From NCBI GenBank assembly GCA_001986395.2, contig MQVO02000018.1, forward strand, positions 186,001 through 250,000: a stretch of 64,000 nucleotides of DNA, in the 5' to 3' direction. Source of the DNA: Irpex lacteus (taxonomy: Eukaryota; Basidiomycota; Agaricomycetes; Polyporales; Irpicaceae). The notes beneath the pieces are model-generated. The model saw only the letters and a program-made list of their open reading frames with translations, made no database searches and was not told the DNA's origin. The translations under genes and the position numbers were made by a program. Shown here in pieces: positions 1,387 to 59,787 of this stretch (the first letter of the stretch is position 1; each line of letters starts with the position of its first letter).

Positions 1387-3479
1387 TCATTTTCGTCTGT
1401 TTCTAGAACATTCATCTCGATGGCGGCCAGAGCACCAGTCCCTACGATATGGAGAATGAGTAATTACCGAAACGTCCTACATGTCGACGTAAAACGTACA
1501 TTTCTTGGCATTCGCGACTGCAATAACGTGCTTGCCAACAACCTTTGCAGATCTTCATTCCATGGTGCGGGGAAAGTGAGCATAGGCAGTCAGGCCAGGA
1601 ACAGCCCACACGTGAGAAGCGTTCGTCTCCCAAGTTCAAGATTTGTTCACTCCAAGGCTCAGGATCCTCAATATCAGGATCAGACAGAGACAGGCCACAA
1701 GCGAACCCGAGTTCATCCCATAAAGCCGCGACGGGGATCCATATCTGGTATCGATCCTTTGGTCTTTCCTCGACGGGTGCTAGGTATTCCCGAACAGGGT
1801 ACCACACAGATTGCATGAAGACTACCACGGTATGTAGAAGGTTAAATGTAGGCTTCGAGATCTGTGATTCAAGTGCAAGTCTTGCAGCGGCCGCTTTACA
1901 TATAGTCATCAGGCGACCGATGATTGCTGTAGACAGTGTAGAGAAAGAATCTGCTTAGCAGGGTGCCTCTTTTGAGACTAAGTGCTTACTGAGGAAATCC
2001 TTGTTTGCACGTTCTTGAGTAATACGAAGGCGAAACAGCGCCTGCATAAGGGGGAGCAATTTCATGCGTACAGCTTCCTTCCAGAATGCTGTAGCCATTG
2101 CTAAAGTCATACGACCAGCTGAAGCAGCTTCGAAGAGTTCATCCCAGGTAAATCTGCACAAAGTGTCAGTTCTGAATAGAGACTGTAAAATAAGCGAGTG
2201 AATTCACGATATCACATAGAACGAAGTTTTGAGAACTTCGTATGTGAATGCCATAATGACATAACTGGCAGAGTTTTCCGAGCAGACCTGCCGCTGAAAT
2301 GCAATCGAGCAGCTAGTGCGTAGTTGGACAAGGGATGTAGGAGGCAACGATTGTAGTATTGCCGGACAGGCAACGACCATCATATGAAAAATGCTGAGAT
2401 ATCCTGCCAAGATATGGTGAAATATGTATCGGCTGCCCAGGAGATACGCCATCTTGGCAACCACTGCGCTTCGTTGGTTTGTTTTTATGACTGACTCCTC
2501 GAGGAATTGTCGCATAACGACATGATTATGATCAGGTCCGCTTCCAATGACAGGCCCCTGTTCTCCGATACCTATCGAGAGTATGCGCCAAGCTGCTTCA
2601 CAGCAGGAGAGATTGCGACTCTGTGTCCACACATACATTGCAACATGGTATGCGCGGCCATAGGTAAGCTGTTGGACCTGTTTACTAAGAGCTTTTGTCA
2701 GTAATCTGTATAGAGACGGTCCGCAAAAATATCGAACCGCTGATAGCAACTCACTAGCAGGCGTGGTGAAGTTTGATGACCGAATATGTCAGCGATAGCA
2801 TGCGTGCACACATGGTAGACCGCATTGGACCGCGACCGAGAGACGTGTCTGTCATAACACTGAGAGTCTGGTCCCTATTTGACCACAACATCATGCAGAG
2901 GCGGTTAGCCCTTTCCAGAAAAGACTTGGTAGCTTTGAGGTATCTGCGCCGAGACTCAGGCCCCTTTGTCACCATGCGGAGATACCCGCAAAGACACCCA
3001 TAAAGAACACTATGAACATTATTAAGGTATGTCTTCGAGAAACAGGTTTGAATGAGTATAGTAATCATATCGAAAAATACCGAATGACTATAACGCACCT
3101 CTTGAACACCACCATCCAAAACGTAAATGCTTTTTTCAGAGGCTATATCCATGACCAGATCTGCAAGCCCTTCGTCGTGCATTACCCACAGGTCAGCATT
3201 TGCGTGCAAGCCCTCCTGGTCCATGCAGTACCGAATGCAATGCCAGAGGGCGACGTCACGTTGTATCTCCTGTATGAGGTCAAACCGGCGCACATGGCCG
3301 CAGGCGTGACACTTCTTGAGCTGTTTGACGAGTTCTTGCAATGAATCGAGTCTATCTTCTCCTATTAGGTGGAATGCCTCCTCCATAAGGTCAGAGTCGT
3401 ATTCGCGATATTCAAGGTCCCCCAGTAACGACATTATATTGTCGTATGGCAGCCTTACTTCCGGCTCTGGTTCGACCAT
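1387..3479 (-). CDS. MYND-type zinc finger protein, paralogue A
   Basis: Intracellular protein of unknown function with a C-terminal MYND finger, a fold that usually binds proline-rich partner peptides. Exons (transcript order): 3479-3099, 3032-2755, 2684-2208, 2153-1990, 1926-1500, 1441-1387; phases 0-2-2-1-2. Starts MVEPEPEVRLPYDNIMSLL, almost the same as paralogues C, D and H. The central region carries the family motifs YHVAMYVW and CSIAFQRQVC. The finger reads CSWPDCLC, then HGMKICKGCW, YCSRECQEM and, in the last 55-nt exon, DWCSGRHRDEC. The donor of intron 3 is the weak GTGAAT. Convergent with the cellobiose dehydrogenase gene, 150 bp away. About 593 residues. Finger assignment is firm; no function can be inferred beyond it. 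Confidence 0.88.
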
Positions 3480-4272
3480 AGTTAAAGCAGGTACCTAGCA
3501 GCCTCTAACTTGATAGAATGGTTATATCAGCCAGATATGATAATTCGATCCTTTGACATACACCTACAGTCTTTAAAAAAACAGTACGCGAAAACTCTGA
3601 AGTTGCCCGTTCAACGTTGTCAACTGGCGGTAGAAGACAAGGTAATGATTGACGTTTGAACTCTGGTAGTTGGCTAAGCGCCTAGTATGAGGTACGAGTG
3701 CGTGGAGACTGGTTCTGAGCCCAGCCTAGATTCATCTGGTGTCGCAAACCGACGCATAGCCTGTCGACAATCCAAGAACATATATCCGATTCCCATCACA
3801 ATCCCAGATAGAAAGGTACACATAAAAGTCGTACAACACCAACGAGTACCGAAAGAGACTACGCAGAACCCAAAGGAAATGCAAAAGCATCACAATTAAC
3901 AACCAAATGCCTGACGAACTTGAAGAGTGACTCGCGGGGAGAGAAGTCAAAACAAGGTGCGCAGTATGATATCTAATACGAGAGCTATACATGACAGCAA
4001 GTGAAAACTGCCCTCCGATTACAATAGCTGTCGGCTACGCACAGAGTTGCGCAATGCTTTCAGAGGAGAATCCCAAGAAGGCCTCCAAGCAAGCCAAGGC
4101 CGAGGTCAGTAATGACAAAGCCAAGGTCACCGAGCAAACCACCAAGGAGAAGGCCGAGACCGGGAAGAAGGAAACCGAGGACAGTGGTCACGGTTGAGAC
4201 AACAGTGCCCAGCAGTTGACTGCGAGGCAGTACTTAGGAGCTGAAACATAGTCGAAGTGATTTGAGGTGTGC
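3480..4272. other. Intergenic, possible small Lys/Glu-rich ORF
   Basis: Upstream region of MYND gene A and downstream region of the secreted-protein gene. Its only coding-like signal is the stretch 4051-4197 on the plus strand, rich in AAG, GAG, GCC and ACC codons, listed separately. Nothing else recognised. Confidence 0.5.
3991..4197 (+). CDS. Possible small Lys/Glu/Ala-rich protein (doubtful)
   Basis: A 68-codon frame whose second half is almost entirely AAG, GAG, GCC, GTC and ACC, the codons favoured by highly expressed fungal genes; the first half looks random. It encodes repeats such as KKASKQAKAE and KEKAETGKKETE, which resemble disordered or stress-type small proteins. No family recognised, no clear upstream exon found. 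It may be a relic, a last exon of an unrecognised gene, or chance. Confidence 0.25.
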   Translation: MTASENCPPITIAVGYAQSCAMLSEENPKKASKQAKAEVSNDKAKVTEQTTKEKAETGKKETEDSGHG

Positions 4273-4888
4273 TTACCCAACTTCGACCAGGAGCGCGTGA
4301 ATTTCAATGGCAGCCGCAATGGGGTGGGCGGTCAGGAGGGAAAGAACGGCGCCCAGCGCGGTCAAAACGAGCTGTGCAGACGACAGTCGTTCAGCAAGGG
4401 ATGTTATGCAGATGTGGCAGCCATGAACTTACGCGAACAACCTGAGCGATGATTGAGGCGACTGCACCGACGGTTACAATGGCATTCGGTGCAACATTGG
4501 CAGTCACTCCGTTGTTGGCGAGAACGACGGAGGATGGTTGACCTTGCAAACCCTTGACGTCGGTGATGATGCCGTTCAAGACCGTCTTGATGTTGTTGAC
4601 AATCGGAGTCACCTTAGCGGTGGTCAGATCATTAGGACCAAGGCCCTCTGAAGATAGTGAATGGTCAGTTAAGGTTTTCTTGTGATGAAAGGCGGAAGCG
4701 CAGTACGTACGGAGCTGCTGAGTGAGCGGGGTCAGGGACTGTGTGGCGCCAGCAAAGATCTGCGGTAAGCTCTGGGGTTGAGCCTTCTTTACGAGAGCAC
4801 CCGCCTCAGCTTCGCCGGTGGGAGCAGCGAAAACGGAGACAGCGCTGAGCGCAAAGGTAGCAAAGGTAGCGATGGACTTGAATAACAT
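4273..4888 (-). CDS. Small secreted protein, 163 residues, unknown family
   Basis: Exons 4888-4711, 4647-4433, 4371-4273; introns of 63 and 61 nt with GTACGT and GTAAGT donors; the frame closes exactly at TAA. The N-terminus is a clear signal peptide (MLFKSIATFATFALSAVSVFA) with cleavage after an Ala-rich end near residue 21. The mature chain is small and amphipathic: a Gln/Thr-rich stretch (AGATQSLTPLTQQL), an Ile/Val-rich central helix-like region and a second hydrophobic run (LVLTALGAVLSLL) in exon 3 that could be a helix packing against the first. No cysteine pattern of a hydrophobin. It resembles small secreted proteins with repeated hydrophobic helices that are common in Agaricomycetes, but I cannot name a family. 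A TATAAAA box lies about 117 bp upstream of the ATG. Confidence 0.8.
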
Positions 4889-5004
4889 GGTGATGATTGT
4901 TGTGGCGGCGTAGGAAGAAACACTGAGAGGAGAGTTGGTATCCTGAGAGAGGCGGAATGCGACTGTATGTCAGGATGAGGATTGGTAGGTAAAATTTGCT
5001 CGTC

Positions 5005-19234: not shown

Positions 19235-21433
19235 ATGGCCGATTCTCAATATCCGGGTTATAAAATGGCCAATCAAACCGGCAGGTAAGTCACCGCCAAG
19301 ATCGACATCTTCACATCTCTTACCAACAATGTGATACCGTAGATTTCAGATCGTCCCGTATTCCGACTTCCTGTTGTTCTCGCCAGAGAGGATAGCACCC
19401 ACCCTACGTAAATTCCAATACGACAACGACCCAGAACGTCAAGTGATCGTTGAAGCTGTGTTGGACGTGGTGCAAAGTGAAGAAGCAGAGAAAGACCAAT
19501 GGGAAGGTCATTGGACAACGTTTATGGAGACCGGACTGCATAGGGTAGTCGTCGATATACTATGCGAGGACAAGACATATGCGGCAGGAGTTTCCGAGGT
19601 ATATTTTAGATCCACTTCGTGTTCGCCCCATCTAACTCGCTCGGTCAAACCCCCTTGGTTCCATAGGGCTACCCGGCGTGGACCTTCGTTCTGCTCCGCC
19701 GTTTTGGTGTCTGGCTTTCTCATAAGATGAAAACTGACCGTCATGACACCACCACTGTCGCACAAGTCGACGAAGTGCTCGGGCTATTGCCCCGTCTATG
19801 GAAGTACACTTGGACGAAGGAGATAATCAAGCACAAAGCTCCGTTCAGGATGTGGCGGTACAAGAACGAGGATGAAGACCTGGCGATATCGTTCATACAT
19901 ACTGTAGACGTTATGTTCAACCTCTACGTCATGCGACAGTGAGTGTCCGTTCTTATATTTTTCTGCCTTCTACGAGATCTTGTGCAGTGGCTTAACGCGT
20001 AATTTTCCGTTGCAGCCGTGAAGCACCTCCGGTAACGAACCATCTTGGACACCTGGCACTCTATATTTGGACGTTCTCTTGCGACTTTCGGTTCGATGAC
20101 CTCATGCTCCGCGCCCTCATCCTTGTCATCGATACCGCCGAACGTGAACAGCTCAAACCGTTCTTCAAAGAAGCTATCCTCGACAAGGACATTGTTCTCC
20201 CCTTACACGAACGATTCTGCTCGGAACTGCTCGATCAATATAACGTCAATATCCCTCTAAGAGGCGTGACATCGTTCCTTAGTGCAATTTCGGTGCATTG
20301 CCCTCCTGTACTGCACATAAAGTCAAGACCAACGACCCAAGAGATGTTCAACGAACAGGTGGCTAGGAAGGCCAGAGGGGAAGAGGAGGACGAGACGACG
20401 TTGATGCACTGTATCAGGATCGCGTGTCAGAGGCAGATATGTCAAGCTGAAAGCGACTCAATCACAAACAGCGTGCTAGGTGCAAGTCTGAGCGTGATCA
20501 AGTGAGTACAACTGGTTTCTTCTGTGGCGGTCACTCTGCATGTATGCATATATGTTGATTTCTGGCGCTGATGGTGGTTTGCGACAGAGATATCATGCAG
20601 GATAGCTTGGAACCCGGAAGTCAGAGACACTTGCCCGCCTTTTTTGAGGTAATTGACACGGCAAAGATTATACCTATGGTGGCACGCATAACTATACACG
20701 CCATTGACCAGAACGATCCCAGCCTCTTCCGTACGTGATTTCAACGCTTCCCTACGCGCATATACATGACTCTCTCATTCTTTGCTCTCGGCCTTCTTTG
20801 CAGACTGTCTTCAATTCATCTTAGAAATGTACGGTGTCTCTGGAGAAACCTGCAGACGCACTGCCACCCCGAACGTCATGTCCAAAATCTTTGCAATCTC
20901 ACGCGAGCTGTGGTATCCGACCGTCCAAGAGATCCGAAACCATCCCATCCCATTGGACAACGACCAAATGGCGAAGATGCGAGATTGGGCGCTGCAGGTG
21001 TGGTTGACGTTCGGGAAAAAGCTAGGGTTCAATGAGCGAGTGGAGGAAAGGAGGGTCAGGGCGATGTCGACTAGCCAGGATCATTCGCAAGGGTTGAGGG
21101 ATGCAGCTCGACGAGGCAGCGTCGATGCGACGAATGAACTACGCAGGGCGCAGGGCGCTGATAACGGTTGGCGGGGGATACTGAGTCCGTTCGTAGTGAA
21201 CTCGAGAATGTGTCATTGGAAGGACTGCTTGTGTTCGTGGGACGAGAAGCCGCCACATCGGATGAAGGTGTGTAAAGGGTGTTGGAGGGTATGGTACTGT
21301 GGGATGACGTGTCAGGCGCGGTGAGTCGACAGTATATTACCTACCCCGTATACACGGCTCATAAAATGTTGTGGATTTCAGGGACTGGCAGGATCACAGA
21401 GACTACTGTCTACGGCATCGTGAAAGAACTTAG
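19235..21433 (+). CDS. MYND-type zinc finger protein, paralogue B (most divergent)
   Basis: Exons 19235-19284, 19343-19598, 19667-19938, 20016-20501, 20588-20730, 20804-21320, 21382-21433. After an extra short first exon the phase series 0-2-2-1-2 matches the other eight genes. The N-terminus does not carry the EVRLPY block. The central motifs are still visible as HLALYIWTF and IACQRQIC, and MHC precedes the latter with one residue extra. An insertion with an acidic Lys/Arg patch (ARKARGEEEDE) lies just before that motif. The finger reads CHWKDCLC, HRMKVCKGCW, YCGMTCQAR, DWQDHRDYC. About 591 residues. The region before the finger (ERRVRAMSTSQDH...) is longer and more polar than in its relatives. 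Function unknown. Confidence 0.88.
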
Positions 21434-21965: not shown

Positions 21966-24048
21966 ATGGTCGAACCAGAGCCTGAAATTAGGCTCCCGTA
22001 CGACAACATAATGTCGTTACTGCTGGACCCTGAATATCGCGAGGTCGATCCTGACATGTCCAGGGACGCATCTCGCCGGATACAAGAAAACAGGTTCGGA
22101 TTGCAACAGCGCGTTATGCAACTCAAAAAGTGCCACGAAGATGGCAATGCGCGCCGGTTTGACCTCATGCAGGAAGTTCAACGTGACCTCGCATTCTGGC
22201 ATTACATTAGAGGCTGCATGGACCGGGAGAACATTCCCGACGAGGCAGACGATATCTGGGTAATGCATGAGGATGGAGTGGCAGACCTCGTAATGGATAT
22301 AGCGTCCGAGAAAAGCATTTACGTTCTGGATGGCGGTGTTCAGGAGGTACGTTTCAGTCATCCTATCTTGTTGATACGCCGAAAATTCATCGCTTAAATC
22401 CATCATAACCTGTTTCTCGAAAGACATACCTTCACCATGTTCATAGCTCCCTTTACGCATGTCTTTGCGGGTATCTCCACATACTCATCAAGCCAGCGTA
22501 TCGGCGTAGATACCTTAAAGCTGCCAAGTCATATCTGGAGCGGGCTAACCGTCTCTGCATGATGTTGTGGTCAAACAGGGACCAGACCCTCGGCATTATG
22601 ACCGACATACCTCATGCATATAGCGACGACCGAATGCGGTTTGCTATGATTGGGCGCATGTTATCACGACGTATTCTATCATCAAACTATACCACGTTTG
22701 CTAGTAAGTTCCTACCACCCGCTGCGATACTCGACAGTTCGTGTTTACGGTTATTGACGGAGGAACATAGTAAACAGGTTCAGCAGCTTACATACGGCCG
22801 CGTATATCATGTCGCAATGTACATGTGGGCGCACACTCGCAACCTCCACTACAGTGACATAGCTTGGGACATAGTCTCGATAGGCATCGGAGAACAAGGA
22901 CCTGTCGTTGGAAGCGGACCTGAGCATAACGTTGTGGTGCGACAATTTCTCGAAGAAGCAGTCATGCAAGCCGATCGGCAAAACGAAGTAGCTGCGAGAA
23001 TGTCGCAAATCCTGAGCAACCGATGCGTATTCGACCGCCTCCTCGCAACCTATCTTAGTGTTTTTCATATGATGATCACTGCCTTGCCCGCTATCCTACG
23101 TTCATTATCTCCCACAACTCTCCTGCAGTTGCGCAAGAGTTGCTCAATCGCATTTCAGCGGCAGATGTGTTCGGGATGCACTGACGATGGCATGGCGCGC
23201 ACATACGAAGTTTTGAAGACATCGATGTACGTTATATCGTGAGTGTGCTCGTTTATTTGTAGACGTTTGCACACTAACACATTCTGTAGATTTACCTGGG
23301 AAGAACCCTTCGGACTCGCTTCAGCCGGCCCCATGACCTTGCCTATGGCGCTAGTGTTCTGGAAGGAAGCCGTGCGCATTAAGTTGCTACCCCTCATGTT
23401 GGCGCTCTTTCGCCTTCGTGTGACTCAAGAACGTGCAAACAGAGACTTCCTCAGTAAGTGCTACGTCGTGGAAGGAGGATCGCCACTGAGCAGATTGTCT
23501 TTTCTCAGCAATGCTTTGTCGTCTATTGACTATATGCAGAGTGGCCGCAGCTACGATTCGATTGAATGAATCGCGGCTCTCAAACGTTGGGCGTGACCTT
23601 CTACATACCGTATTAGTGTTCATGCGCTCTATGTGGTACCCTGTCCAGGAATACCTGGAGCCCATGGAGCGACAGCCGAACGACCGATACGAGATGTGGA
23701 TGCCCCTTATAGCGTTATGGGAAGACCTCGGTCTCGCCTGCGGCTTGTCTGAGTCCGATACCAATATCGAGAGCCCTGAGTCTTGGAGTGAACAGGTTTT
23801 GCGCTCTAGGAGTAACGGTTTCACACGCGCGGGCTGCTCTTGGCCTCAGTGCCTGTGCTCACTTACGCCTCATCATGGGATGAAAATCTGCAAGGGTTGT
23901 TGGCAAACACGCTACTGCAGTCGTCAATGTCAAGTAATGTACGCCTTGCGTCAAAGCATAATGTCTTTTGTCGATTGCTCATTTCCCATACTGTACTAGG
24001 GACTGGCCTCGCCATCAAGCAGTATGTTCTGAAAACACACGACAGTAA
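21966..24048 (+). pseudogene. MYND-type zinc finger protein, paralogue C, with a one-base frameshift
   Basis: Exons by comparison with D: 21966-22346, 22424-22703, 22771-23238, 23290-23453, 23509-23938, 24000-24048. Begins MVEPEPEIRLPYDNIMSLL; motifs YHVAMYMW and CSIAFQRQMC; finger CSWPQCLC, HGMKICKGCW, YCSRQCQVM, DWPRHQAVC. Exon 2 is 280 nt against 281 in D and 278 in A. The lost base is near 22667, where ATGTTATCAC is followed directly by GACG; A and D have CTGACG there. Normal splicing of intron 22704-22770 then leads to a stop soon after. The intron is 67 nt and stop-free in the shifted frame, so its retention would restore the downstream frame. All other sites look intact, so the lesion is recent, or a sequence error. 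Confidence 0.8.
22704..22770 (+). other. Intron whose retention would repair the frame of paralogue C
   Basis: GTAAGT donor and TAG acceptor are intact. Length 67 nt (remainder 1) offsets the one-base loss in the exon before it, and the frame is open across it. Confidence 0.7.
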
Positions 24049-24721: not shown

Positions 24722-26835
24722 ATGGTCGAACCCGAGCCCGAAGTAAGGCTGCCATACGATGACATAATGTCTTTATTGGGCAGCCCCGAATATCATGAAT
24801 GGGACCCTGCTGTGGCCAAGAGCACATCTCACCGGATATGCAAAGAACGATTTGAGTTTGTAGAGCGCGTCGAGCAGCTGAAGAAGTGCCATGAGCACGG
24901 CCATGCGCGTCGGTTCGACCTTATGCAGGAAATACAACGTGATCTCGCCTTCTGGCATCGTCTTAGATACCAAATGGACCAGAGGGGCTTCCCCGTGGAT
25001 GCTGACTTTTGGATAATGCACGAAGACGGGCTGGCAGCCCTGATCATGGATATCGCCTTTGATAAAACCATCTACGTTCTCGACGGTGGGACTCAAGAGG
25101 TATGTGGTAGCTTCCATGATATGCCTATCGTTCATTCGTACGCATGCTGATTTAAATTTATTTCCAAAAAGACATACCTTCATCACATCCATAGCTCTGT
25201 TTACGCATGCCTTTGTGGATATCTCCGAATGGTCACCAAGCCCGAGTATCGGCGCAGATACCTCAAAGCTGCCAAGTCGTATCTGGAGCGGGCCAACCGT
25301 CTTTGCATTATGCTATGGTCAAACAGAGATCAGATCCTCAGCATCATGACCGACACACCTCACGCATATGGTGGCGGCGAAATGCAATTCACCATGATTC
25401 GGCGCATGTTAGAACTGACGTATGCGATCATCAAACTACATCACGTTTGTTAGTAAGTTGCCAGCTTTGCGACATAATGTAGGCCTTTTTCAGTTACTGA
25501 CAGAGAACCACAGTAAGCAGGTTCAGCAGCTCACATACGGCCGTGTGTATCATATTGCGCTGTACGTGTGGACGAAAACTCGCAACCTTCACTATAGTGA
25601 AATGGTCTGGCACGTACTTTCGATAGGAATCGGAGAACAGGGACCTGTAACTGCAAGCGGGCCTGATGCTAACGTCATTGTGCGACAATTTCTCGAGGAG
25701 TCGGTCATGCAAGCAAAGCGACAAAAGGCGGTAGCGACTACAATATCGTACCTTCTCAGCAACCGAGGCGTATTTGACCGTGCCCTGGCAAACTATCTCA
25801 GTGTGTACCATATGATGATCACTGCATGCCCTTCTATCATACGTTCCTTGCCCACCACCCTCCTCGAGCAGCTACGCGATAGTTGCTCAATCGCATTTCA
25901 GAGGCAGATGTGTTCTGGGGGCACTGACGGTAACATGGTGTTCACATATGAAGTTATCAAGACCTCGATGTACGTGATATCGTGAGTGCGCTCGTTCATT
26001 TTAATATATAGTTGTATAGCTAACGACGCTTTGTGCATAAGATATACCTGGGAGGATCTCTTCAAAATCACTTCAGCCGGCGGCCGTATGACTTTAGCAA
26101 TGGCTACAACGTTCTGGGAGGAAGCCACAAGCATCAAATTGCTCCCCCTCATGCAGGCGCTGTTCGTCCTCCATATCACTCAAGAACGTGCAAACAAAGA
26201 CTTCCTCAGTAAATAATTTTTCCCAAGAGACGGACCGCTGCTGAACATATTCTCTTTACAGCAATGCTTTGTAGCCTGCTAGCCATATGCAGACAGGCCG
26301 TAGCTAAACTTCGAAATGAGCCGCGGCTCTCGACTGATGCGCAGGGCCTACTACATACCGTATTGGTTTTCATGCATTCTTTGTGGTACCCTGTTCGGGA
26401 ATGCCTGGAGCCCATAGAGGAACGGCCAAAAGATCGACACCAGATATGGTTACCCCTGGCGGAGTCATGGGAAGAGCTCGGGCTAGCTTGCGGCTTATCT
26501 GCTGCTTATCCAAAAATTGAGAGCCCTAAGCCTTGGAGCGAACAGATTACGCACTTTGGGGTCATTGCCTTCTCGCGCGAGGGCTGCTCTTGGCCTCAGT
26601 GTCTGTGCGCACTTGATCCACATCACGGAATGAAGATCTGCAAAGGTTGTTGGCCAACCCGTCAAGTACGTTACTGCAGCCATCAGTGTCAACAAATGTA
26701 TGTTTCGCGTTCACCGTGACATAGTTTTATCGATTACTCATGTCCTACCGTGACTACAGGGACTGGCGTCGCCATCAAGCTGAATGTCACAGATATACAA
26801 GTAGTAACTCCCACTCGAAGCTAGCGTTGGTCTAA
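24722..26835 (+). CDS. MYND-type zinc finger protein, paralogue D
   Basis: Exons 24722-25099, 25172-25452, 25514-25981, 26042-26208, 26262-26697, 26760-26835, phases 0-2-2-1-2; about 601 residues. Intact tandem partner of C: starts MVEPEPEVRLPYDDIMSLL, motifs YHIALYVW and CSIAFQRQMC. The finger has a nine-base insertion: CKGCW is followed by PTRQVRYC where relatives have QTRYC, so the spacing between two zinc ligand pairs is three residues longer. That may weaken or change metal binding. The last exon runs DWRRHQAEC and then a 16-residue tail. Followed 155 bp later by a tRNA gene on the same strand. Confidence 0.88.
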
Positions 26836-47550: not shown

Positions 47551-49715
47551 CTATCGAGCTCCGCGCTCGGGACGACGACACACGGAGCGATGTTCTTTCC
47601 AGTCTTGACTATGATAACAAAGACGGTTTGTAAGTTATAATGTCAAAGAGCCCGTGTATTGGTTACGTACTGCGCTTGACACCTTGTGCTGCAATAAAGC
47701 ACCCTCCAGCAACGCTTGCACACCTTCAGCCTATGAGTGGGACCAGCTGCACACGGGCATTTCCTCCAGAAGCAGCCCCTCCTCGGTTCGCCATACCAGG
47801 GATAGAAAGTCGAATACAAGTGCGGCAGACATCCCCAGGGTTTCGGATCCAGTACCTCGCGATCGGAGTCGACGTCAGCGTCAGAACCAACAGAAGATAG
47901 ACCACAAGCTCGACCCAGTTCTTCCCAAGCAGATAAGAGAGAGATCCACGTTGATTGCGCAGGGCTTGACAAGCCTCCGAGTGTCTCCAGGAGCAGCAGA
48001 GTTGGATACCATACCGAGCGAACTGAGTCTATTGCATTTTTAACCAGTGTAGAGTTCGCTTGAAATCCATCTTCGGCAGAAGTTTGCTCGCGGTATGTGT
48101 CGACAGCCTCCTGATACAGAATGACGATGCGAAGTATCGAAGCTGAGGAAATACATAAATGTGCACTCTCGGGAATGAGGCATATACCGGGATCGCACCT
48201 ATCAAGTTCGGAGTAGCACGGTCCTTGATGGCGGGTAGATTGATTATACGTTCAAAGAGAGGTAAGATCTTGTAACGAAACGCTTCGGCGAAGAATTCCT
48301 CTATGAGGTCTTTCGTCGCACGTCCTTTCGCAGAGGCGTCGAAGAGATCCACCCATGTCTGTCTGCGAACGGTATCACACGTGAGCGTGGAGCATCCTAG
48401 AGGCCAACACATGCACCTACGACATAAGATCCATCGACAACTCCGTAACTTCGTAGACGAAGGTATCATCCTTCATTCCGCCTGAGCAGAGGGTTCGTTG
48501 ACACGCAATAGAACAAGCGTCTCGAAGTCTCCCACGAGTATAGTTGGAACAAGATTGTAGGATCTGAGGGCAGAGGTCAAGCATAGTATGGCAGATCTTC
48601 AAGAACTCCGCTAGAGCGCCGTCAAGGTATTCGTACATGATGACTGTGCAGTGGAATTGGTCTATGAGATGCTCTTGTCGGTTCGGGCGTATTATGGCTT
48701 GCTCTAGAAATTGCCTAGCGTCTTCTACGTCTGGGTCATCAGAAGATGTCTTCAAATCAGTACCGTTCGCGATTTTCTTCAGCCCAGGAGTAAACAGCTC
48801 CCAAGAGAAGTTGTTGGTGTCTGGTATTAAGGTGGAGGTCCACACATACAGTGCTATATGACAAATGTGGCCATCTGTCAGCTTCGGAGCATGTCCGCTA
48901 TTCGAAGATCCGTCAGCTGGGTTCTGGGCGAGACATGATGAAACGAGCGAGAGGTGGACATACAAGCAAACCCTATGTGCCTCGCGAGCCACAAAAATCA
49001 ATTCAAGTAAACGATCAAAAGGAGACGAGTCCGGATCTGTTTCTCTATAGAAGTTCAATACTTGAGCAAGAAGTGTCTTCTCCTGCGCCCATAGCTTAGA
49101 GAATAACTCGTTGATCTTCTTCAGGTAGCCTGCTGTATCTGAGTAGTTGGGGGCACCGAAACCGTGGGAGAATTGAGCTGCTCGAGGGTATCCGCACAAA
49201 CAGAGGAACGCGGATCGATATACTTCATGGAAGTAAAGCTAAGAGTAGTTTGCCACGATCACGGACCATCAGTACAACACTTATACTGCAGTTATAGGAT
49301 CAACACACACCTCAGCATGAACTTTCTTTAAGTCATAAATTCTCTCGTCCAATGCCAGACTCAGGATGGCGTGTGCTATGCCCGACTCATGAAAACGTGC
49401 CCATTGGGCGGCATGCAGAGCTTTCTCGTCGGTGGGGTTCCTGAGTAAGAAAGCGTTATGCCAATTCTCCAGTTCGCGTCGCACGGTTCGTATGGTAATG
49501 ACGTGTAACCCGTTAGCGTTGTCGGCGTCCTTACACTCCGAAAGCCGACTCGCAAGTTTGGTGAGTTCTGCTAGGCTCCTGGGGGCCATGGGGGTAGATA
49601 ATACACCAGGCTCACGCTGGTAGCAATTATTGTCAGGTTCGAACGGGTCCGGGCCAAGGTCGAGGTTGTCGAAGTCCCTGGAGCCCTCCATACTGAGCAT
49701 GGTGGTCCGCATCAT
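47551..49715 (-). CDS. MYND-type zinc finger protein, paralogue E (one intron lost)
   Basis: Exons 49715-49311, 49238-48421, 48362-48199, 48142-47671, 47608-47551; 638 residues. Phases 0-2-1-2: the phase-2 intron that interrupts the region before the central HxxxxVW motif in the other eight genes is absent, and exons 2 and 3 are fused into one of 818 nt. The N-terminus is divergent (LDLGPDPFEPDN) without EVRLPY. Central motifs: CHIALYVW and CSIACQRTLC. Finger: CFWRKCPC, HRLKVCKRCW, YCSTRCQAH, DWKEHRSVC. A perfect CRE palindrome lies 162 bp before the start. An alternative start is the Met at 49691. Function unknown. Confidence 0.87.
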
Positions 49716-50169: not shown

Positions 50170-52281
50170 CTACGACCTGGAGCACACATCCCGATGACCA
50201 GCGACCCAATCTCTGTTGGTACAATATTTAGTGATCTCGCTCTCCCAGTAGCAGAAACGCCGAGTAGGAACGGACTTACTTCTCCTGGCAAATGGGGCTA
50301 CAATAAAATACCCTCCAACACCCCTTACAAACCTTCATCTTATGCGCCGGGTCCATCAAACACAAACATCCCTCCAACGCACACCCCCTCCTCCCAATCC
50401 TCCCACCATACTCCTGCACAGCAGCAAGATGCCCCTCACTACCCCACGGCGCCGGATCCCTCGTTATACGCTCCGACTCCTTCAAATTACACGCCTGGCC
50501 CACCTGCTCCCACAGATCGACGACGAACGTGAGCATCTGCTCGCGATGATCCCGCTTGGCTTTGAGCTGGCGCAGGCGCGTGAGGATGGGGTACCAGACT
50601 GTGCGGGTTGTCTCGGCTACGTTGCGCACGAGCCCGATTACTCTGGGAGAGTGGGATTGGCCGAGGAGTTTGGTGGTCATTGTGTCTCGTAAGAGGGAGA
50701 TGGGGCGGACGAGGCATGCTGTGGAGAATAGACACGAACGTGAGCGTGGTGTAACCCAGTAATATGTCTGGCCTGACTTACAGATAAAATCTGGGGTGGC
50801 ACGTTCTTCGAGTGCGGGAAGATGGAGTAAACGCAGGAAGAGAGGCATGAACTTGATGCGTATTATTTCTTGGAGGAAGTTTGTGGCTTGGTCTTGTGTC
50901 ATCTGTTGCGCCTTCGCAACTTCAAACAGATCATGCCGGGTGAACCTGAACCAACCAACAAAACCCCATTAGCACCACTTTCTTCGCGCACACATGAGAC
51001 ATTAGACACTCACGAGATCATGTAAAAGGCTACTTTGAATATCTCGTACATAACTCCGTTCGAGATCTCGCCTGCAGAGCAGAGCTGCCGCTGACAAGCG
51101 ATAGAACATCCGTCTCTTAACTTTGATAGGAGCTCGAACGATACAGGATGCAGCACGGGGGGACAAACGATCGCAATCGCGCGCAGGCCACTCATGTATG
51201 CCATGACTTCCTTCTCCATAACGTCCGGATGTAACATGACGAACGTCATCTTGCTTATCAACGCTTCTTCATGGTGGGTGTTTACGATCGCCTCCGTCAG
51301 GAACTGTCGCAGCCCGACGTTATCGTTCGGTCCATTATTCAGGATCGGGCCCTCATTTCCCTGGCCGATGCAGTATAACTTCCATGCACCCTCTGTGCAA
51401 AAGAGGTCGCGGGTCCGCATCCATACGTACATGGCAACGTGGTATGCGCGGCCGTAGTTCAGTGATTGGACTTGAACACTGGGGATATTTGAGAGCGAAT
51501 CAGTTGGTATGCACATGGCCGGGGAGAATACACTACGTACTAGCACTCGTAATGTAGCTTGTTGATAGCGACAGCAACGTGCACAAGACGCAGGAACGTA
51601 GTCGTTTCGCGTCCTTCATAGTATTCACCCCAGAGTGCGTCCGACAAATGATCAAGCGTCTGTTCCCTCTGTCTCCAGAGCGTAAGGTAGAGCTTGTTCG
51701 TCCGTTCCAAGAAATATTTGGCGTTTTTGAGGTGTTTCCGTCGCCAGCGCTGCACAATACGGAAGTACCCGCATAGACACGCATGAAGCGAGCTGTACAC
51801 ATGGTGAAAATAATTCTTTTAATGAGCAACGTTTCTTCGTAGTCAGCGCATCTCGATCCATACATGAATGAATCAACACGTCACGTACTACTTCCTCCTC
51901 GTTTTCCTGCACGTATATCCTCTCGTCTGATGCTACGTCAAGAACGGCATCGGCCAGCCCACTGTCGTGAAAATCCCAGAGATCATCGTCCTCCTCGTCT
52001 CCAGAGATACTCCACTCCAGCAGCTTCTTCCGCGTCCACCATAAGCACAGCTGGTCGCGCACGTCCTTTATAAGTTTGAATCTCTTCATGTCGCGGGCTG
52101 CGTTAGCTGCTTTGAGCTGTTGACCGAGCTCCCTGAGGCCATCCTCGGTCTTCGTTTCTAGGGTCTTGTAGTACTCTCCCCAACCCTTGATGTTGTTGTA
52201 TTCGCGGAATTCGGGATCACCGAGCTGTGCAAAGAGTTCTTCGAAACTTGCTCCCTTTGTGAGGTCGGGCCAGTAAGCCAT
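50170..52281 (-). CDS. MYND-type zinc finger protein, paralogue F
   Basis: Exons 52281-51889, 51815-51541, 51478-51014, 50945-50782, 50718-50280, 50212-50170; phases 0-2-2-1-2; 592 residues. Closest to G, its head-to-head neighbour: both have WPDL, then GDPEFREYNNIK (GDAEFREYNNIK in G) and FHDSGLADAVLDVASDERIY. Central motifs YHVAMYVW and CSIACQRQLC. Finger: CALEGCLC, HKMKVCKGCW, YCSPICQEK, DWVAGHRDVC. The start at 52281 is chosen because it aligns with the start of G; an in-frame ATG five codons upstream (52296) is possible. An Asp/Glu cluster (GDEEDDDLWD) is specific to F. Confidence 0.88.
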
Positions 52282-52785
52282 TGGTAAGTATTCCAAGATA
52301 CGAGGTATATAGAGGGCCTAGAGGCTAGACCCCGAATTTAATCAGTAGTAAATAGGCTGCGTTATACTGCAATGCGTTAGCGGGAGGTAAGTAACTTATA
52401 TTTCAAGTACGTCCAGCTTACCTATTACGTTAGTCGCGAACAATTACTTGACATGCGTAGTATTCCGGGAGTACTTCAAGGGACAGAAAGAGTAGCAGGC
52501 AACGTTTCTTGAACTAGCTGCGGGCAAATAATTCGGCCAATTGAGTGACAATTGGGTGACCGTGACGTCTCGCGTTGGTGCCTGTGACTACCGTGTCTGT
52601 GACCACTATATCCGCGGCTTAGACGCGCGCTGAACGCGAATCTCATCTTAGACCACACAAAATACATGGCAAGTAATTGTTAACAGCTGACTTAAGAGGT
52701 AAGTTGCGCATACTTGCAATATAATTATGCATTTATTTGACCATTGTATCATTTAGTACTACTAGTCGCAAGAACGCATTTACTT
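52282..52785. promoter_or_regulatory. Shared 504-bp promoter of the divergent MYND genes F and G
   Basis: Between the two starts. Contains TGACGTC at about 52563 with flanks resembling the CRE upstream of E, and TATCATTTAGTA at 52747-52758, a variant of the motif upstream of D and E. No ORF of note. Confidence 0.45.
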
Positions 52786-54862
52786 ATGGCATCCCCATGG
52801 CCCGACCTCGCAGATACTTACGCTGAACTCAGCGCAGCTCTCGGTGACGCCGAATTTCGTGAATACAACAACATCAAGGACTGGGGAGAGAAATACAAAA
52901 CCCTTGTCCCGAGGACCGAGGATGGCCTCAGGGAGCTCGCCGCGCAGCTGAAAACAGCTCATGCAGCTGGCGACGTCAAGAGATTTGAACTCATGCGGGC
53001 AGTGCGCGAACAGCTGTGCCTATGGCATACACGGAAGAAACTGCTGGAATGCAGTATCTCTAAGGACGACAACGGCGACTACCTCTGGGAGTTTCATGAC
53101 AGCGGGCTGGCCGACGCCGTTCTCGACGTAGCCTCAGACGAGCGGATATATGCGCATGAAAGCGTAGAAGAAGTGGTACTAGCTGCATCTCTGAAAAGGC
53201 ATTACAATGCGCTAATCGCAGGAATCATAGACTTACCTCCACCACGTGTACAGCTCGCTCCATGCGTGTCTTTGTGGTTATTTCTGTGTCTTACAGCGCA
53301 GACGGTGTAAGCACCTCAAAAGCACTAAATACTACCTGGAACGCACGAATAAACTGTACATTATGCTCTGGAAGCGAAGGAAACAAACACTCGACCATAT
53401 GTCGGACGCGCAATGGGGTGAAACCACTATGCTTCTGCGTGTGGTGTATATTGCTGTTGTTATCGAGAAGCTACATCACGAATGCTAGTACGTAGTCTAT
53501 AGCGGTTATAAGTGAACCGACTCACTCACTCTAAAACGTCACGATTTTGTAGTCTTCAGATGCAACCACTGAACTATGGTCGCGCATATCACATCACAAT
53601 GTACGCATGGATGCGCACCCGTGACCTCCGGTGCACCGAGGGGGCTTGGAATCTGTTCTTCATCGGATTAGGAACACAAGGGCCGATCATCAACAACGGA
53701 CCGAACGACAACGTCCCCCTGCGACAGTTCATGACGGAGGCAATAGTGGGCACCAACCACGAAGAAGCGTTGGTCAATAAGATGGCCTTCGTCATGTTAC
53801 ATCCGGACGTCATGGACAAAACCCTCATGAGATATATGAGTGGCATTCGCGCAATCGCTATCGTCTGCCCGCCTGTTCTACGCCCCGTGTCATTCGAGGT
53901 ACTCTCGAGAATGCGAGACGGGTGCTCTGTTGCTTGTCAGCGGCAACTCTGCTCTGGAGGCGAGATCTCGAACGGAATCATGTACGAGATATTCAAGGTA
54001 GCCTTTTACATGATCTCGTAAGTGTCCAGTGTACTGTTACACACATTCACGATAGAGGTGCTGATGGATTGAATTCTGTTTGTTCAGGTTCACCCGTCAC
54101 GACCTCCTCGAAGTCGCCAATGAGGGAAAGCTCACGCAAGATCAAGCCACGGAGTTCCTCCAGGAAATCGTCCGTATCAAGTTCATGCCTCTCTTCCAGC
54201 GTTTACTGCATCTTCCTGTGCTCGAGGAACGCGCTACTCCAGACTTCGTCTGTAAGTCAAGTCAAGGCAGATTCCGAGTCGTGCCGCATCAACGAGCAAC
54301 ACTCATACTTATATTCTGCCCAGCGTGCCTCGTTCGTCCCCTTTCTCTCTGCAGAGACGCAATGACCACCAAATTTCTCGGTCAGTCTCGCGCACGCGCG
54401 ACAGTCGGCCTCGTGCGCAACGTCATCGAGACCACACGTACAGTATGGTACCCCATCCTCACGCGCCTCCGCCAACTCAAAGCCATGCGGGATCATCGCG
54501 AGCAGATGTGGACGTACGTCGTGGTGCTATGGGAGCAGTTTGGCCAGGCCTGCGGCCTATCTTCGTCTGACCGTCTCACGCGAGAGCCCGTGCCATGGGG
54601 TAGCCATCTCGTCACGCTGCAGAATCCTAGGAGTGTTAGGAGAGGGTGTTCGTTGGACAGCTGTATGTGCGTGATGGCCCCGTCACATAAGCTTAAAGTG
54701 TGCAAAGGCTGTTGGCGGGCGTTTTATTGTAGCGAGAGATGTCAGGCTCAGTAAGTCATGGTCTGCAACTGCGCTCGTTTGTTCCCTTGCTGACACTTGA
54801 ATGTGTTTTTCCTTACTAGAGACTGGCTCGCTGGTCATAGTGACGTTTGCGTCAGGTCGTAG
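52786..54862 (+). CDS. MYND-type zinc finger protein, paralogue G
   Basis: Exons 52786-53175, 53231-53487, 53553-54017, 54088-54251, 54324-54750, 54820-54862; phases 0-2-2-1-2; 581 residues. Divergent sister of F with the same last-exon length (43 nt). Begins MASPWPDLADTYAELSAAL. A six-residue deletion relative to F follows DAQWGE. Central motifs YHITMYAW and CSVACQRQLC. Finger: CSLDSCMC, HKLKVCKGCW, YCSERCQAQ, DWLAGHSDVC. All splice sites are canonical. Convergent with H. Function unknown. Confidence 0.9.
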
Positions 54863-55036: not shown

Positions 55037-57124
55037 CTACTGTTGTCTGTTTTTGGAACATACAGCATAGTGGCGACCAGAATACCAGTCACTGTAATCA
55101 AAAGGATCAGCGATTGCAGAACATTAGCAGAGCATGATACTCACATTATTTGACATTGGCTGCCGCAATAACGCACTTGCCAACAACCCTTGCAAACCTT
55201 CATCTTATGATGCGGAGCAAGCGAGCACAAACATTGAATCCAAGAGCATCCGACACGAGATGTGGTTCCAGGTCCCAAATCCGAGATCTGCCCTCTCCAT
55301 GGCATAGGCTGTTTGACGCCATTGGTGGTAGAAGATAGACCGCATACGAGTCCAAGCTCTTCCCACACTTCGCCTACACGTACCCAATGCGGCTGCATAC
55401 TATTGGTCTTTTCCTTCAGCGGTTGCAGGTTCTCCTTCACAGGATACCACATAGAGTGCATGAACACGAACACATTATGCAGCACTTGGTGTATGCTATG
55501 CGACCTTTGGGCTTCGGCTCGTATCCTTGCCGCAGTGTCTCTGCATATAGTCAATAAGCGAACGAGAACCGCTGGGAGTTGATAACTCGAATCGTTAGCA
55601 GTGCACCGAACTTCGAAGATATAATAAGTACTGACAGAGAAAGTCTGCAGATGCACGTATTTGAGTGACACGGAGCTGGATAAGTGACTGAACGAGTGGC
55701 AGCAGCTTGATGCGCAAGGCTTCCTGCCAGAACTCTACAGCCATTGTTATAGTCATGTGACCGGCGGTGGCGGTAGTGAACTCGTAAAAGTCATTGTGCG
55801 TAAACCTTTGCTAGCATTGATATAAGTTATGCGTGGATAGTCTAGTGAGGATACTCACGAGATGAGATAGAACGAGGTCTTAACAACTTCGTACCTAAAG
55901 CCATCTGAATCGGTATCCCCAGAACAGAACTCCCGCTCGAATGCAATTGCACAGCTCGCGCGCAGGTGCTCCACAGACGTTGCTGTCAAGGAATCTACCA
56001 TAGACGGACAGGCGACGACCATCATGTGAAAGATGCTCAGCGTGCGCGCTAAGATGTGGTCCAATATGCCACTGTGTCGTAGTAGATAAGACAACTTTGC
56101 AGCCACTGCTCCCTGTCGGTTTACTTTCACGACGGCTTCTTCAAGGAATTGTCGCACCACGATGTTATCATTAGACCCACTGCCAACGATGGGCCCCTGC
56201 TCCCCGATACCTACGGAGATCAACTGCCAGGCTGTTTCGCTACAAAACAGGTTTCGAGTCCGTGTCCACACATACATTCCGATATGATACGCGCGGCCGT
56301 ACGTGAGCTGCTGGACCTGTTTACTATAACCAGCGCATGTCAACAATCGAGTAGTTAAACCATACAACTAGACGTGGGAAACCGAGAACACTTACTAGCA
56401 AACATGATGTAGTTTGACGACTGAACAAGCGAGTGCAAGCAAGCGTCCGAGCATTGCGAACCGCGTAGGGCCCGGACGCCCATGAGGGGTGTCTGTCATA
56501 ACACGGAGGACCTGATCTTTGTTTGACCAAAGCATCATGCAGAGTCGATTGGCCCGCTCTAAGAACGATTTACTACCTTTGAGGTATCTGCGCCGAAGCC
56601 CTGGGGTGGTCACCATACGGTAGTATCCACAGAAACAGGCAAAAAGAGAGCTATAGACGTCATGCAAATAGGTCTAGCAGATAACGCGGTGAGTATACGT
56701 AGCACATTTTTGAGTCTAGTTAGTGAGAGTCATAGCGTACCTCATGGACACTACCGTCTACAACGTAGATGTTCTTGTCGAACGCTATATCCAGCACGAG
56801 GTCGGCCATCCCTTCATCATGCATCACCCAGTGGTCGCCATCTACGCGCATATTAATATACCCATGGTCAATTGCTTGCCTCACACAGTGCCAGATAGCA
56901 AGGTCGCGTTGTACGTCCTGTATGAGATCGAACCGACGTGCATGGACGCATTCGTGGCATTTCCTGAGTTGCACAACGAGCTCTCGGAGTTCGGACCAGC
57001 TCCGACGCATACGGTCAGATTCGGTCCTGATTATATCTGGATCGTACTCTGAATACTGAAGGGGCCCCAGTAGCGACATTATGTCGCCATAAGGGAGCCT
57101 GACCTCAGGCTCGGCTTCATCCAT
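55037..57124 (-). CDS. MYND-type zinc finger protein, paralogue H
   Basis: Exons 57124-56741, 56673-56396, 56323-55859, 55805-55636, 55571-55145, 55091-55037; phases 0-2-2-1-2; 592 residues. Belongs with A, C and D: starts MDEAEPEVRLPYGDIMSLL. Central motifs YHIGMYVW and CAIAFEREFC, where Glu replaces the usual Gln. Finger: CSWIQCLC, HKMKVCKGCW, YCGSQCQII, DWYSGRHYAVC. The last loop is two residues longer than in C and D but equals that of A. Tail-to-tail with G, about 175 bp apart. Function unknown. Confidence 0.88.
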
Positions 57125-57702
57125 CTTGTGCCAGTGAATAGTTCACAGCCTGTAAGTATACACTCATGCAGTCAGTTATGGAAGACGAGCTTTCGTGAAG
57201 ATACTCACGGTCTTACTTGCAGTGGTATACGCTGTACCTTGGGTATTAAACTCGTTAGTCGTGAGATGGCGGTCGAAGACAAAGTGATCATGAGTCTGGA
57301 CAACAAACGTCAAACACGAACATTGAGCGCTCTCGGCTACGCGATAGCGCCGATACGACTTTGAGACAAGTACTGTTGAGAACATTGGCAAGTACGTAGA
57401 GCGACCTTGACGTCTGTTAGTTATTTGTAACTACACGTGCGTGCGTCGAGTCATATACCTCACTGGAAGGCGGTAGCTGAACGGCTTTTCAATTAATATG
57501 ATGCAACTGGATTATAAACCTTGTATAACCACATACTTAAAGCCTTGAAAAGAAAGATGAATCCGAATGAACACTGAACGAGAACACCGGCTGCGGTCCT
57601 CAATAAGCATGTTGTACACCATGAATCAGCAAAAGAAGCACTTGTTGGAGGTCTCTTACTCAACAATCTCGACTAAGTGAAATAAGCCCGTTCCCCCAGG
57701 CA
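57125..57702. other. Intergenic between MYND H and I
   Basis: Upstream of H and downstream of I. The stretch GCGGTCGAAGACAAAG at about 57268 resembles GCGGTAGAAGACAAGG at about 3625, upstream of A, at a similar distance from the start. No gene. Confidence 0.55.
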
Positions 57703-59787
57703 TCACCTAGCACGTGCACTCTCCCGAGAGCATATATCTCTATGTCCTTCCTTCCAATCCCTACAGAATTAAGCCATCAGCTACAACATCCCGGCCATCC
57801 TTGAAATAGCGCACAAGACTCACTGTTTCTGGCACCTCGAACCACAATATACCGCCTTCCAACACCCTTTACACACCTTCATATGATGCTCCGGCCACTC
57901 CGCACACAAACACTTCTCCCAAGCGCACCCTCTCTTGAACAATATCTTCTTGTCCTCCCTATGAGTCTGAATCCGGATATATCCTTCGAGTGGCTCCTGA
58001 GGGACATTGCACAGCTCTCCAATCCGAGTCCACGCCTGCAACGCCGGCTTCAAGTCGTCTCGTACCGCGCGTCGTTCAGTCGATAGACGACGCAAACCTG
58101 TCCAGATGGTGTGCCATACGGAATGGACTGTGTTCTGCATATCTGCTAAGCCCCTGTGAGCAGCCGCAGCTCCTTCTTCTCGGAATTGAAATGCCAGTGC
58201 GACCCGGCACACCTCAAACAACCAGACTACATCACCTGCGAGAGAATATGAGCACAGCGAATTGGGGGTGATAGTCGTACAGGAGAGTATTTACTTATGA
58301 GGGGCTCGGAACGATTGGCCGCTGCAGCATCAGTAGGAAACTGAACGAAGTGCGCGATGAGTGGGAGTAGCTTAATGCGATTGAAATCATCGATGACTTT
58401 CGCAGCTCGCGAGCGGGGGAGTTCGCTAGGGCGGATGAAGCGCCACATATGTTTCGTCGTAAACCTGAATACCATACATCAACGTGCGAATGAGTATGAC
58501 ATAGCTACTACGATGACAAGCACTAGCACTCACGTGGTCCACCAAAACGACAGCAAGAAGATATCATGCACTACGTCTGGATTCTTCCCCTCTCCTAAGC
58601 ACACCTGGCGTTGGCATGCCTTGGAGCAATTTTCGCGCAGCAAGATGTAACTTCTGTTTTCCACATCATCGAACAGCTCAAAACATGCAACGCGCAGCCT
58701 CCACATCCCGCCGAGTATCGACAGAATCTTGTCATCTGTGCAGGAGGGCGAGAAGAGCAGGAAGCTGAGAGTATCCATGAACTCCTCTTTCATGTTGTTA
58801 CGAATGACGGCTTTGTTGAAGAACTGACGGACCCTGTTGTTGCCTGTGATGGAAGGCTGAATCGGCTCTTCGAGGTCCACAGCACGCATGAACGCGTCCC
58901 AAACTATCATTGCGATGTAGGGATTAGAAGTATTCATCCATACGAACATCGTCACGTGGTGCGTCCACCCAGTCGTGAGCCTTCGTTTATCCCGGCTAGG
59001 TGAGAATCCATGTGTTAAGCGTGCCAGCACTGCTAGAATGAATTCCCACAACGTACTGGCATTGAAAGTATAAACCGTCGGCAGTCTGTGCCAACGAGAT
59101 AAGACGATACTCCATGGGCCAGCCGTGCACCTCGTCCGGGCTCAGATCAAGTAACGCAGGGTCACGCTGTGCCCACAGATTCTCGAACAGTCCTTCCAGA
59201 TGCTCTAAGAAGTCTTTGACCATGTCGAGAAAGCGTGGCGGGGAGTACTTGATAACACGAAGGTACGCACAGGCGCAAGCATAGACAGCGCTGTAGACAT
59301 CGTGGATATATTCCTATTTATGACGTCTCCATGAGCAAACACAACATTCGGGCGATCTCGTCAGTAAGGCTCTCACCTCTTCTTCTAACCCATCTTCTAC
59401 GTCTTCAAATATTCTTTTATCAGAGGCGATGTCAAGGAGACAGTGCGGAAGACGACTGTTATGGATGTCGGCCCAGTTTAGGATGTTCTGGTCATCCTGC
59501 CCTACCCCTTGCAGCACAATACGTCTATGCCAATTCGCAAGCTCGAGTCTAATATCCTCTATAACTCCAAACCTTTCCTCGCCGAGTTCACCAGGCCTGT
59601 GACAAGACCTGAGAGACGAAGCAAATTCCTCTGCTGTACGTCTAGAGAAAGTCGTGGGGCGTGAAAGTAATTCGGGGCTCCAGGTGGGGTCTTTGTCCCC
59701 GAGATCGGTGTCATAGAGCGTGGTCGCAAGGTAAGCGGGTGATCGAGCCATATCTATATTCGCCTGCTTGAGTCGAGGAACACTCAA
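57703..59787 (-). CDS. MYND-type zinc finger protein, paralogue I
   Basis: Exons 59787-59377, 59313-59057, 58995-58534, 58464-58295, 58235-57824, 57760-57703; phases 0-2-2-1-2; 589 residues from 59787, or 577 if the Met at 59751 is the start. Divergent: no EVRLPY block, an LPHCLLDIASDKRIF segment instead of the usual LADxVxDIA. Central motifs HHVTMFVW and CSKACQRQVC. Finger: CAWEKCLC, HHMKVCKGCW, YCGSRCQKQ, DWKEGHRDIC. All sites canonical. Function unknown. Confidence 0.87.

What the first reader, a model, noticed from the sequence alone, without database searches (positions are those of the whole stretch)
1387..59787. Nine MYND-finger paralogues in one 58-kb stretch, with one conserved intron-phase series
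Genes A (1387-3479), B (19235-21433), C (21966-24048), D (24722-26835), E (47551-49715), F (50170-52281), G (52786-54862), H (55037-57124) and I (57703-59787) share order of motifs, length of about 580-640 residues and intron phases 0-2-2-1-2. They lie in three blocks separated by conserved housekeeping genes. Such local expansion suggests birth-and-death evolution under diversifying pressure, as for self-recognition, defence or regulatory families. The functional part is inference.
Basis: partly seen in the sequence, partly recalled or inferred. Interest (0 to 1): 0.8.

Follow-up and report, generated by a model that had tools for sequence, protein, structure and literature searches.

The report
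Clustered zinc-finger gene family, wood-rot fungus
Nine related genes for proteins that end in a MYND-type zinc finger sit close together in the genome of a wood-rotting fungus (probably Irpex lacteus); they look like an old, mostly well-preserved gene family rather than a recent burst, although a sister gene nearby comes in two extremely different versions.

Summary
The nine genes are real. Eight read through; C lacks one base near 22665. They share five intron positions; B has one more 5' intron; I starts at 59751. All nine C-termini pass Pfam's zf-MYND cut-off, with a variant first half (C-x4-C-x-C). The organism is almost certainly Irpex lacteus F17.

The intron series is not special to the window: 32 finger loci (haplotype duplicates included) were read elsewhere, and 20 of 32 gave a model with the series imposed. 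The nine plus one C308 locus form subfamily I (100/100). The four closest pairs have dS 0.70-0.90 and dN/dS 0.18-0.28; dN<dS in 54 of 54 windows of six pairs. Birth-and-death is supported; a recent burst or diversifying selection in the window is not.

Outside the window, of seven relatives lying where a second haplotype was recognised, one has a hyperdivergent allele (about 60% identical protein, one flank 93-99% identical), one is interrupted and one missing. A recognition role stays open. Best reading: a lineage-expanded adaptor family; function inferred.

The parts
1387..3479 (-). Gene A, 593 aa, 6 exons, variant MYND finger
   Evidence: exons 3099-3479, 2755-3032, 2208-2684, 1990-2153, 1500-1926, 1387-1441; zf-MYND 27.6 bits
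19235..21433 (+). Gene B, 591 aa, 7 exons (extra 5' intron), most divergent of the nine (19-22% identity)
   Evidence: zf-MYND 37.8 bits; I. lacteus match P0022 186/188
21966..24048 (+). Gene C, about 590 aa if the frame is carried over the gap, 6 exons; one base missing in exon 2
   Evidence: zf-MYND 33.8 bits
22665..22666 (+). Place of the one-base deletion in gene C relative to D
22704..22770 (+). Intron 2 of gene C (67 nt); open in the shifted frame
24722..26835 (+). Gene D, 601 aa, 6 exons
   Evidence: zf-MYND 25.1 bits (21.1 for the whole protein)
47551..49715 (-). Gene E, 616 aa, 6 exons
   Evidence: zf-MYND 27.6 bits
50170..52281 (-). Gene F, 592 aa, 6 exons; head-to-head with G
   Evidence: zf-MYND 38.6 bits
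52282..52785 (.). 504-bp region between the divergent genes F and G (73% identical proteins)
52786..54862 (+). Gene G, 581 aa, 6 exons
   Evidence: zf-MYND 36.3 bits; unnamed-sample match P0015 161/165
55037..57124 (-). Gene H, 592 aa, 6 exons
   Evidence: zf-MYND 24.5 bits; unnamed-sample match P0021, 135/142 over exon 5
57703..59751 (-). Gene I, 577 aa, 6 exons
   Evidence: zf-MYND 30.0 bits

Best explanation
The stretch is an old local array of subfamily I of a large, clustered fungal protein family: roughly 510-550 residues that look mostly helical, then a C-terminal MYND-type zinc finger with a variant first half (C-x4-C-x-C ... C-x2-C ... YC-x3-CQ ... DW ... H-x3-C). Shown: the genes, their common intron skeleton, their kinship with dispersed relatives, purifying selection between six pairs, and gain or loss in some relatives. 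Inferred: the proteins are adaptors. The finger docks a common partner (MYND domains bind short proline-containing peptides; recalled) and the faster-changing scaffold gives each copy its own client, in lineage-specific regulation such as mycelial or fruiting development. Copies arise by unequal exchange and inversion and are kept if they take on a client.
For: Shared intron positions and finger. The finger-to-end part is the most conserved: mean pairwise identity 0.55 over 36 pairs, against 0.28-0.37 for the five other parts. Subfamily I, with the C308 locus, is separated at 100/100. dN/dS 0.15-0.28 in six pairs. Helix-rich models of two pieces. zf-MYND is the only Pfam family matched by 8 of 8 proteins; six weaker families match 1-2 of 8 at E 0.021-0.2. 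zf-MYND averages 41 in seven Agaricomycetes against 1-26 in the nine other basidiomycetes of the table (PMC4469406, passages). In Ganoderma lucidum 10 of 13 differentially expressed zf-MYND genes peak in primordia or fruiting body (PMC9386254, passages).
Against: No partner, expression or phenotype is known to me for any of the nine. The models are poor (mean pLDDT 69.6 and 55.3; finger blocks 40-53) and the fold search of the better one gave 0 matches at E<=0.001. RRN3, a transcription factor family, matches 2 of 8 weakly (best E 0.044). The Ganoderma genes were not shown to belong to this family. Pairwise dN/dS cannot see selection on a few sites.
Confidence: 0.55

Rival explanations
1. Self/nonself-recognition or defence family: the variable scaffold detects a foreign or non-matching partner and the constant finger passes on the signal; alleles and copy numbers are kept diverse by balancing selection.
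For: A sister gene of subfamily II about 45 kb upstream of the window on the same contig has two alleles about 60% identical in protein, dS 0.88, between flanks 93-99% identical per 500 bp on one side and 84-98% on the other. No STE3 or peptidase M3 match lies on C163 or C32, so linkage to a mating-type locus is not indicated (homeodomain genes were not searched). Of seven relatives lying where a second haplotype contig was recognised, 3 of 7 are hyperdivergent, interrupted or missing in one haplotype. One 60-codon window of the duplicates L034/L035, outside the window, has dN 0.11 and dS 0.10. Precedent: Podospora het-Va is a SET-MYND allorecognition gene (PMC9262711, passages).
Against: dN<dS in 54 of 54 windows of the window pairs and in 9 of 9 windows of the hyperdivergent allele pair. 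The other four relatives have ordinary alleles, 96.2-99.5% identical DNA. The divergent allele belongs to subfamily II, not to the nine. No known cell-death domain among the Pfam matches. Retention of different tandem copies in the two haplotypes would give the same pattern.
Confidence: 0.2
2. Developmental transcription co-regulators that work in the nucleus, each tuned to a stage of fruiting-body formation.
For: zf-MYND genes of G. lucidum peak in primordia or fruiting body in 10 of 13 differentially expressed cases (PMC9386254, passages). High zf-MYND counts in Agaricomycetes. A weak RRN3 match in 2 of 8 is at most a hint.
Against: No convincing DNA-binding domain, no expression data here, and calling MYND proteins transcription factors rests on the domain alone.
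Confidence: 0.2
3. Decaying paralogues with little remaining function.
For: The missing base in C; in a relative, an interrupted allele at C187:1202 kb.
Against: Eight of nine window genes are open throughout, dN/dS is 0.15-0.28, C's branch is no longer than D's (0.20 and 0.21), and C's missing base may be a residual long-read error.
Confidence: 0.05

Closest known systems
zf-MYND domain, Pfam PF01753
   Same: 9 of 9 C-terminal stretches pass the curated cut-off; C-x2-C, YC-x3-CQ, DW and H-x3-C parts invariant in 8 of 8 rows
   Different: First half is C-x4-C-x-C, one more invariant Cys than the eight-ligand pattern (recalled); Pfam aligns from profile position 4-6 in 8 of 9 and from 1 only in B
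DEAF1 MYND (PDB 2jw6, 4a24)
   Same: The only solved MYND fingers among the nine PDB sequences listed for the exon-5 profile
   Different: Not significant (E 0.081 and 0.16); match confined to the finger
Expanded zf-MYND genes of Agaricomycetes (PMC4469406, PMC9386254, PMC2644716; passages read)
   Same: Many zf-MYND genes in mushroom-forming fungi
   Different: The passages count or list the domain; they do not describe this subfamily, its introns or its clusters
Podospora anserina het-Va (PMC9262711; passages read)
   Same: Fungal protein with a C-terminal MYND domain; precedent for allorecognition
   Different: Has SET and Rubisco-LSMT domains; neither matched here

Membership tests
zf-MYND proteins | Score over the Pfam PF01753 cut-off | tested here: met
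   9 of 9 C-terminal stretches, 24.5-38.6 bits against 22.7; whole-protein D 21.1, just under
zf-MYND proteins | Canonical eight zinc ligands starting C-x2-C (pattern recalled) | tested here: not met
   C-x4-C-x-C in 8 of 8 rows of A1, 9 of 9 of A3 and 12 of 12 of A4; outside locus L032_3328 lacks the third Cys. Still MYND-like by score
Dispersed MYND family of this genome | Same intron series | tested here: met
   20 of 32 outside loci gave a model with 0-2-2-1-2 imposed (three with a doubtful last part: L042, L043_5111, L046), 12 of 32 none; on retry with six schemes this one was best in 6 of 15, another in 7 of 15, none in 2 of 15
Dispersed MYND family of this genome | Window genes inside the family tree | tested here: met
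   Subfamily I (nine plus C308 locus) against 25 others at 100/100; nine alone one group in 6% of 200 bootstrap trees
Fungal allorecognition (het) genes | Highly divergent alleles kept in a population | tested here: inconclusive
   One of seven relatives with a recognised second haplotype; no second haplotype found for the window parts tested
Fungal allorecognition (het) genes | Incompatibility or cell death when alleles meet | not testable with these tools
   needs crosses or transformation
Fungal allorecognition (het) genes | dN/dS above 1 in the recognition part | tested here: inconclusive
   Not seen in six window pairs or the divergent allele pair; dN 0.11 against dS 0.10 in one window of L034/L035. 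Site models not run
SET-MYND (SMYD, het-Va) | SET domain | tested here: not met
   not among the seven Pfam families matched at E<=1 by the 8 proteins

The most novel reading that the evidence does not exclude
The variant-MYND family is a recognition system of basidiomycetes: scaffold alleles and copies are kept extremely different within one individual, the constant finger transmits the signal, and the window is one of its better-preserved arrays. The hyperdivergent island at C163:139.5-141.5 kb would be its first visible locus.
Probability: 0.15. Interest if true: 0.85.

Novelty: new variant of a known kind. Interest (0 to 1): 0.42.

Why it matters
zf-MYND genes are numerous in mushroom-forming fungi (average 41 in seven Agaricomycetes, PMC4469406) and, to my knowledge, few have a known role. 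This locus gives a defined family (common intron skeleton, variant finger, two subfamilies) with natural copies, a possible frameshifted copy and allele differences that can be tested in a laboratory white-rot fungus. If the hyperdivergent allele proves to be held by balancing selection, it would be a handle on somatic incompatibility in basidiomycetes, which the abstract of PMC8229728 (search listing) calls poorly understood.

Tried and rejected
Recent burst: rejected by dS 0.70-0.90 for the four closest pairs. Window-specific intron signature: rejected, dispersed members share it. Further relics of the family in the window: best tblastn hit outside the nine gene spans E 0.053, in four flanking pieces E 0.27. 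A second haplotype of the window: not found for gene A or for two intergenic stretches of 8.0 and 7.5 kb, the latter with two short hits on C313; C32 ends at C163:179091. C11 as second haplotype of C187:197-200 kb: no DNA match over 150 bp, left out of the haplotype count. dN/dS of L023/L024 (1.1) disregarded: the two models are spliced differently although the DNA is 99.5% identical. Structure: two weak models, no fold match at E<=0.001 for the one searched. Full-length search with eight window proteins: no hit at E<=0.001. Linkage of the divergent allele to mating-type genes: STE3 matches lie on C37 and C308, peptidase M3 on C187, C58 and C151; homeodomain genes not searched. Literature: six searches with MYND among the terms. 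Searches required only two of their terms and listed 25 of 70 and 20 of 249 papers; one search found none. I saw no title or abstract beginning that describes this subfamily. PMC11677564 on I. lacteus holds no MYND in its main text.
Full report
What was checked. The window is G000:C163:186001-250000 of an assembly of 44,346,346 bases in 317 contigs. The published Irpex lacteus F17 assembly has 317 contigs and 44,362,654 bp (PMC5596461, passages), 16 kb more. The four named proteins among the 26 relatives found are all from I. lacteus; P0003 is 97.4% identical over 155 residues to locus L025 and P0022 matches gene B in 186 of 188.

The genes. All nine lie near the stated coordinates. The final models have 577-616 residues and five intron positions that coincide in the protein alignment to within two columns. 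B has a sixth, 5' intron; I begins at 59751. The unconstrained gene finder gave the exact series only in H and I; for the rest the series was imposed, and A, C, D and F were corrected by hand. Gene C lacks one base in exon 2 at about 22665. Its 67-nt intron 2 has no stop in the shifted frame, so a transcript that keeps it would stay open; the free model found that reading on its own. The assembly is from long reads corrected with short reads, so a residual error is possible.

The proteins. Identities are 65-68% among A, C and D, 55-58% between these and H, 73% for F and G, 34-39% between those two groups, 26-34% for E and I against all but B, and 19-22% for B. The finger-to-end part is the most conserved (mean 0.55 over 36 pairs against 0.28-0.37). 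Nine of nine C-terminal stretches pass the zf-MYND cut-off. C-x4-C-x-C is invariant in the rows aligned, though one outside locus, L032_3328, has Asn for the third Cys. Six other Pfam families match 1-2 of 8 proteins weakly, among them RRN3. AlphaFold models of exons 2-3 of C (with its intron 2) and of exon 5 of H are helix-rich but weak (mean pLDDT 55.3 and 69.6); a search of the second found 0 of 31 matches at E<=0.001. A helical scaffold is likely, not shown.

The family in the genome. Searches with H, G, I, B and E found further loci, mostly through exon 5 with the finger. I fetched 24 stretches around them holding 32 finger matches, six of them on contigs taken as second haplotypes. With 0-2-2-1-2 imposed, 20 of 32 gave a model (three with a doubtful last part) and 12 of 32 none. 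On retrying 15 with six schemes, this one was best in 6, another in 7, and 2 gave none. Among free models, whose printout was cut, L024, L026, L029_6466 and L042 show exactly this series. My bookkeeping gives 41 members with the window, 35 without four haplotype contigs, and 24 of 41 within 15 kb of another; the searches give lower bounds. A tree of 35 rows (the nine and 26 of the 32 outside loci; six left out for poor models or as duplicates) separates subfamily I (the nine plus C308:1471 kb) from 25 others at 100/100. Within it the order is B, the C308 locus, I, E, then F/G and A/C/D/H. The forks at the C308 locus (94/92), E (80/75) and F/G (88/90) are not firm, and B and L023 have long branches, so the order is unsure. 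The nine alone were one group in 6% of 200 bootstrap trees.

Age and selection. Nei-Gojobori estimates by own script, six of 36 pairs: F/G dS 0.90, dN/dS 0.18; C/D 0.70, 0.28; A/C 0.75, 0.28; A/D 0.86, 0.26; A/H 1.83, 0.15; D/H 1.59, 0.20. dN was below dS in 54 of 54 60-codon windows (dS saturated in four). Two allele pairs elsewhere have dS 0.02 and 0.07. The duplications are old and the copies constrained. Outside the window one 60-codon window of the recent duplicates L034/L035 has dN 0.11 and dS 0.10, and the near-identical allele pairs have windows with too few changes to judge. Pairwise tests cannot exclude selection on single sites.

Turnover in relatives. Parts of the assembly seem to hold both haplotypes; this is inferred from DNA identity and gene order, and segmental duplication is not excluded. 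C32:1-3096 matches C163:176000-179091 at 96% and ends there, 6.9 kb before the window. Seven relatives lie where a second haplotype contig was recognised. Four are ordinary: C308/C270 99.5%, C163:164 kb/C32:15 kb 96.6%, C187:1176 kb/C188:79 kb 96.3%, C296:1851 kb/C225 96.2%. Three are not. At C163:141 kb/C32:35 kb (gene at C163:139295-141275) the upstream flank is 93.0-98.6% identical per 500 bp, the bulk of the gene (139.5-141.0 kb) aligns in 0-49% of bases at 72-78%, its last part at 84%, 1.4 kb downstream is present on C163 only, and the far flank is 84-98%. The proteins are 60% identical, dS 0.88. At C187:1202 kb the allele carries a 713-bp insertion with 8-bp repeats of the target and 21-bp inverted ends, in exon 3 by the model of its partner on C188. 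At C296:1854 kb the gene is missing from C225, where 3.96 kb is replaced by 0.69 kb. No STE3 or peptidase M3 match lies on C163 or C32; homeodomain genes were not searched.

Occurrence elsewhere. A search with eight full-length window proteins found nothing. Exon-5 alignments found 20 and 6 proteins. B matches 186 of 188 residues; G 161 of 165; H 138 of 160 with some read-through, 135 of 142 over exon 5. B also has 64% and 56% relatives. F's best match (72%) is the protein that matches G. A, C, D, E and I have nothing over 49%. Orthology in distant Agaricomycetes remains untested.

Interpretation. The evidence supports an old, locally duplicated, constrained family with live turnover in some members. 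I infer adaptor proteins with a constant docking finger and a faster-changing scaffold. A developmental role is favoured by zf-MYND expression in Ganoderma (PMC9386254, passages) and by counts in Agaricomycetes (PMC4469406, table passage). The hyperdivergent allele and the Podospora het-Va precedent (PMC9262711, passages) keep a recognition role open. PMC11138114, on narrow footprints of balancing selection, was seen only in a search listing.

Noticed in passing
L039/L041 with L049-L054 (C163:133500-148800 against C32:27600-43500): Hyperdivergent allele pair of a sister MYND gene (60% identical protein) between flanks 93-99% and 84-98% identical per 500 bp; the C32-type exon 5 is 99.3% identical over 149 residues to an unnamed-sample protein (P0008).
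   Followed up: partly
L037 against L035 (C187:1201800-1206000, C188:37500-41800): 713-bp insertion with 8-bp target repeats and 21-bp inverted ends, hAT-like in form (recalled), inside one allele of a MYND gene.
   Followed up: partly
L043 against L046 (C296:1850400-1859500, C225:12000-16000): One of two neighbouring MYND genes is missing from the other haplotype.
   Followed up: partly
window 22424-23238 and 48421-49238: Intron 2 is open in frame in genes C (after its missing base) and E (66 nt), so intron retention would keep a long reading frame.
   Followed up: partly
G000:C18:1228159-1231476 and G000:C308:685854-693742: Local groups of other zf-MYND matches (three and four in the list of 30) that did not appear, or only weakly, with the window proteins; seemingly a different MYND family.
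   Followed up: no
window 52282-52785: The divergent genes F and G are 504 bp apart, a possible shared promoter.
   Followed up: no
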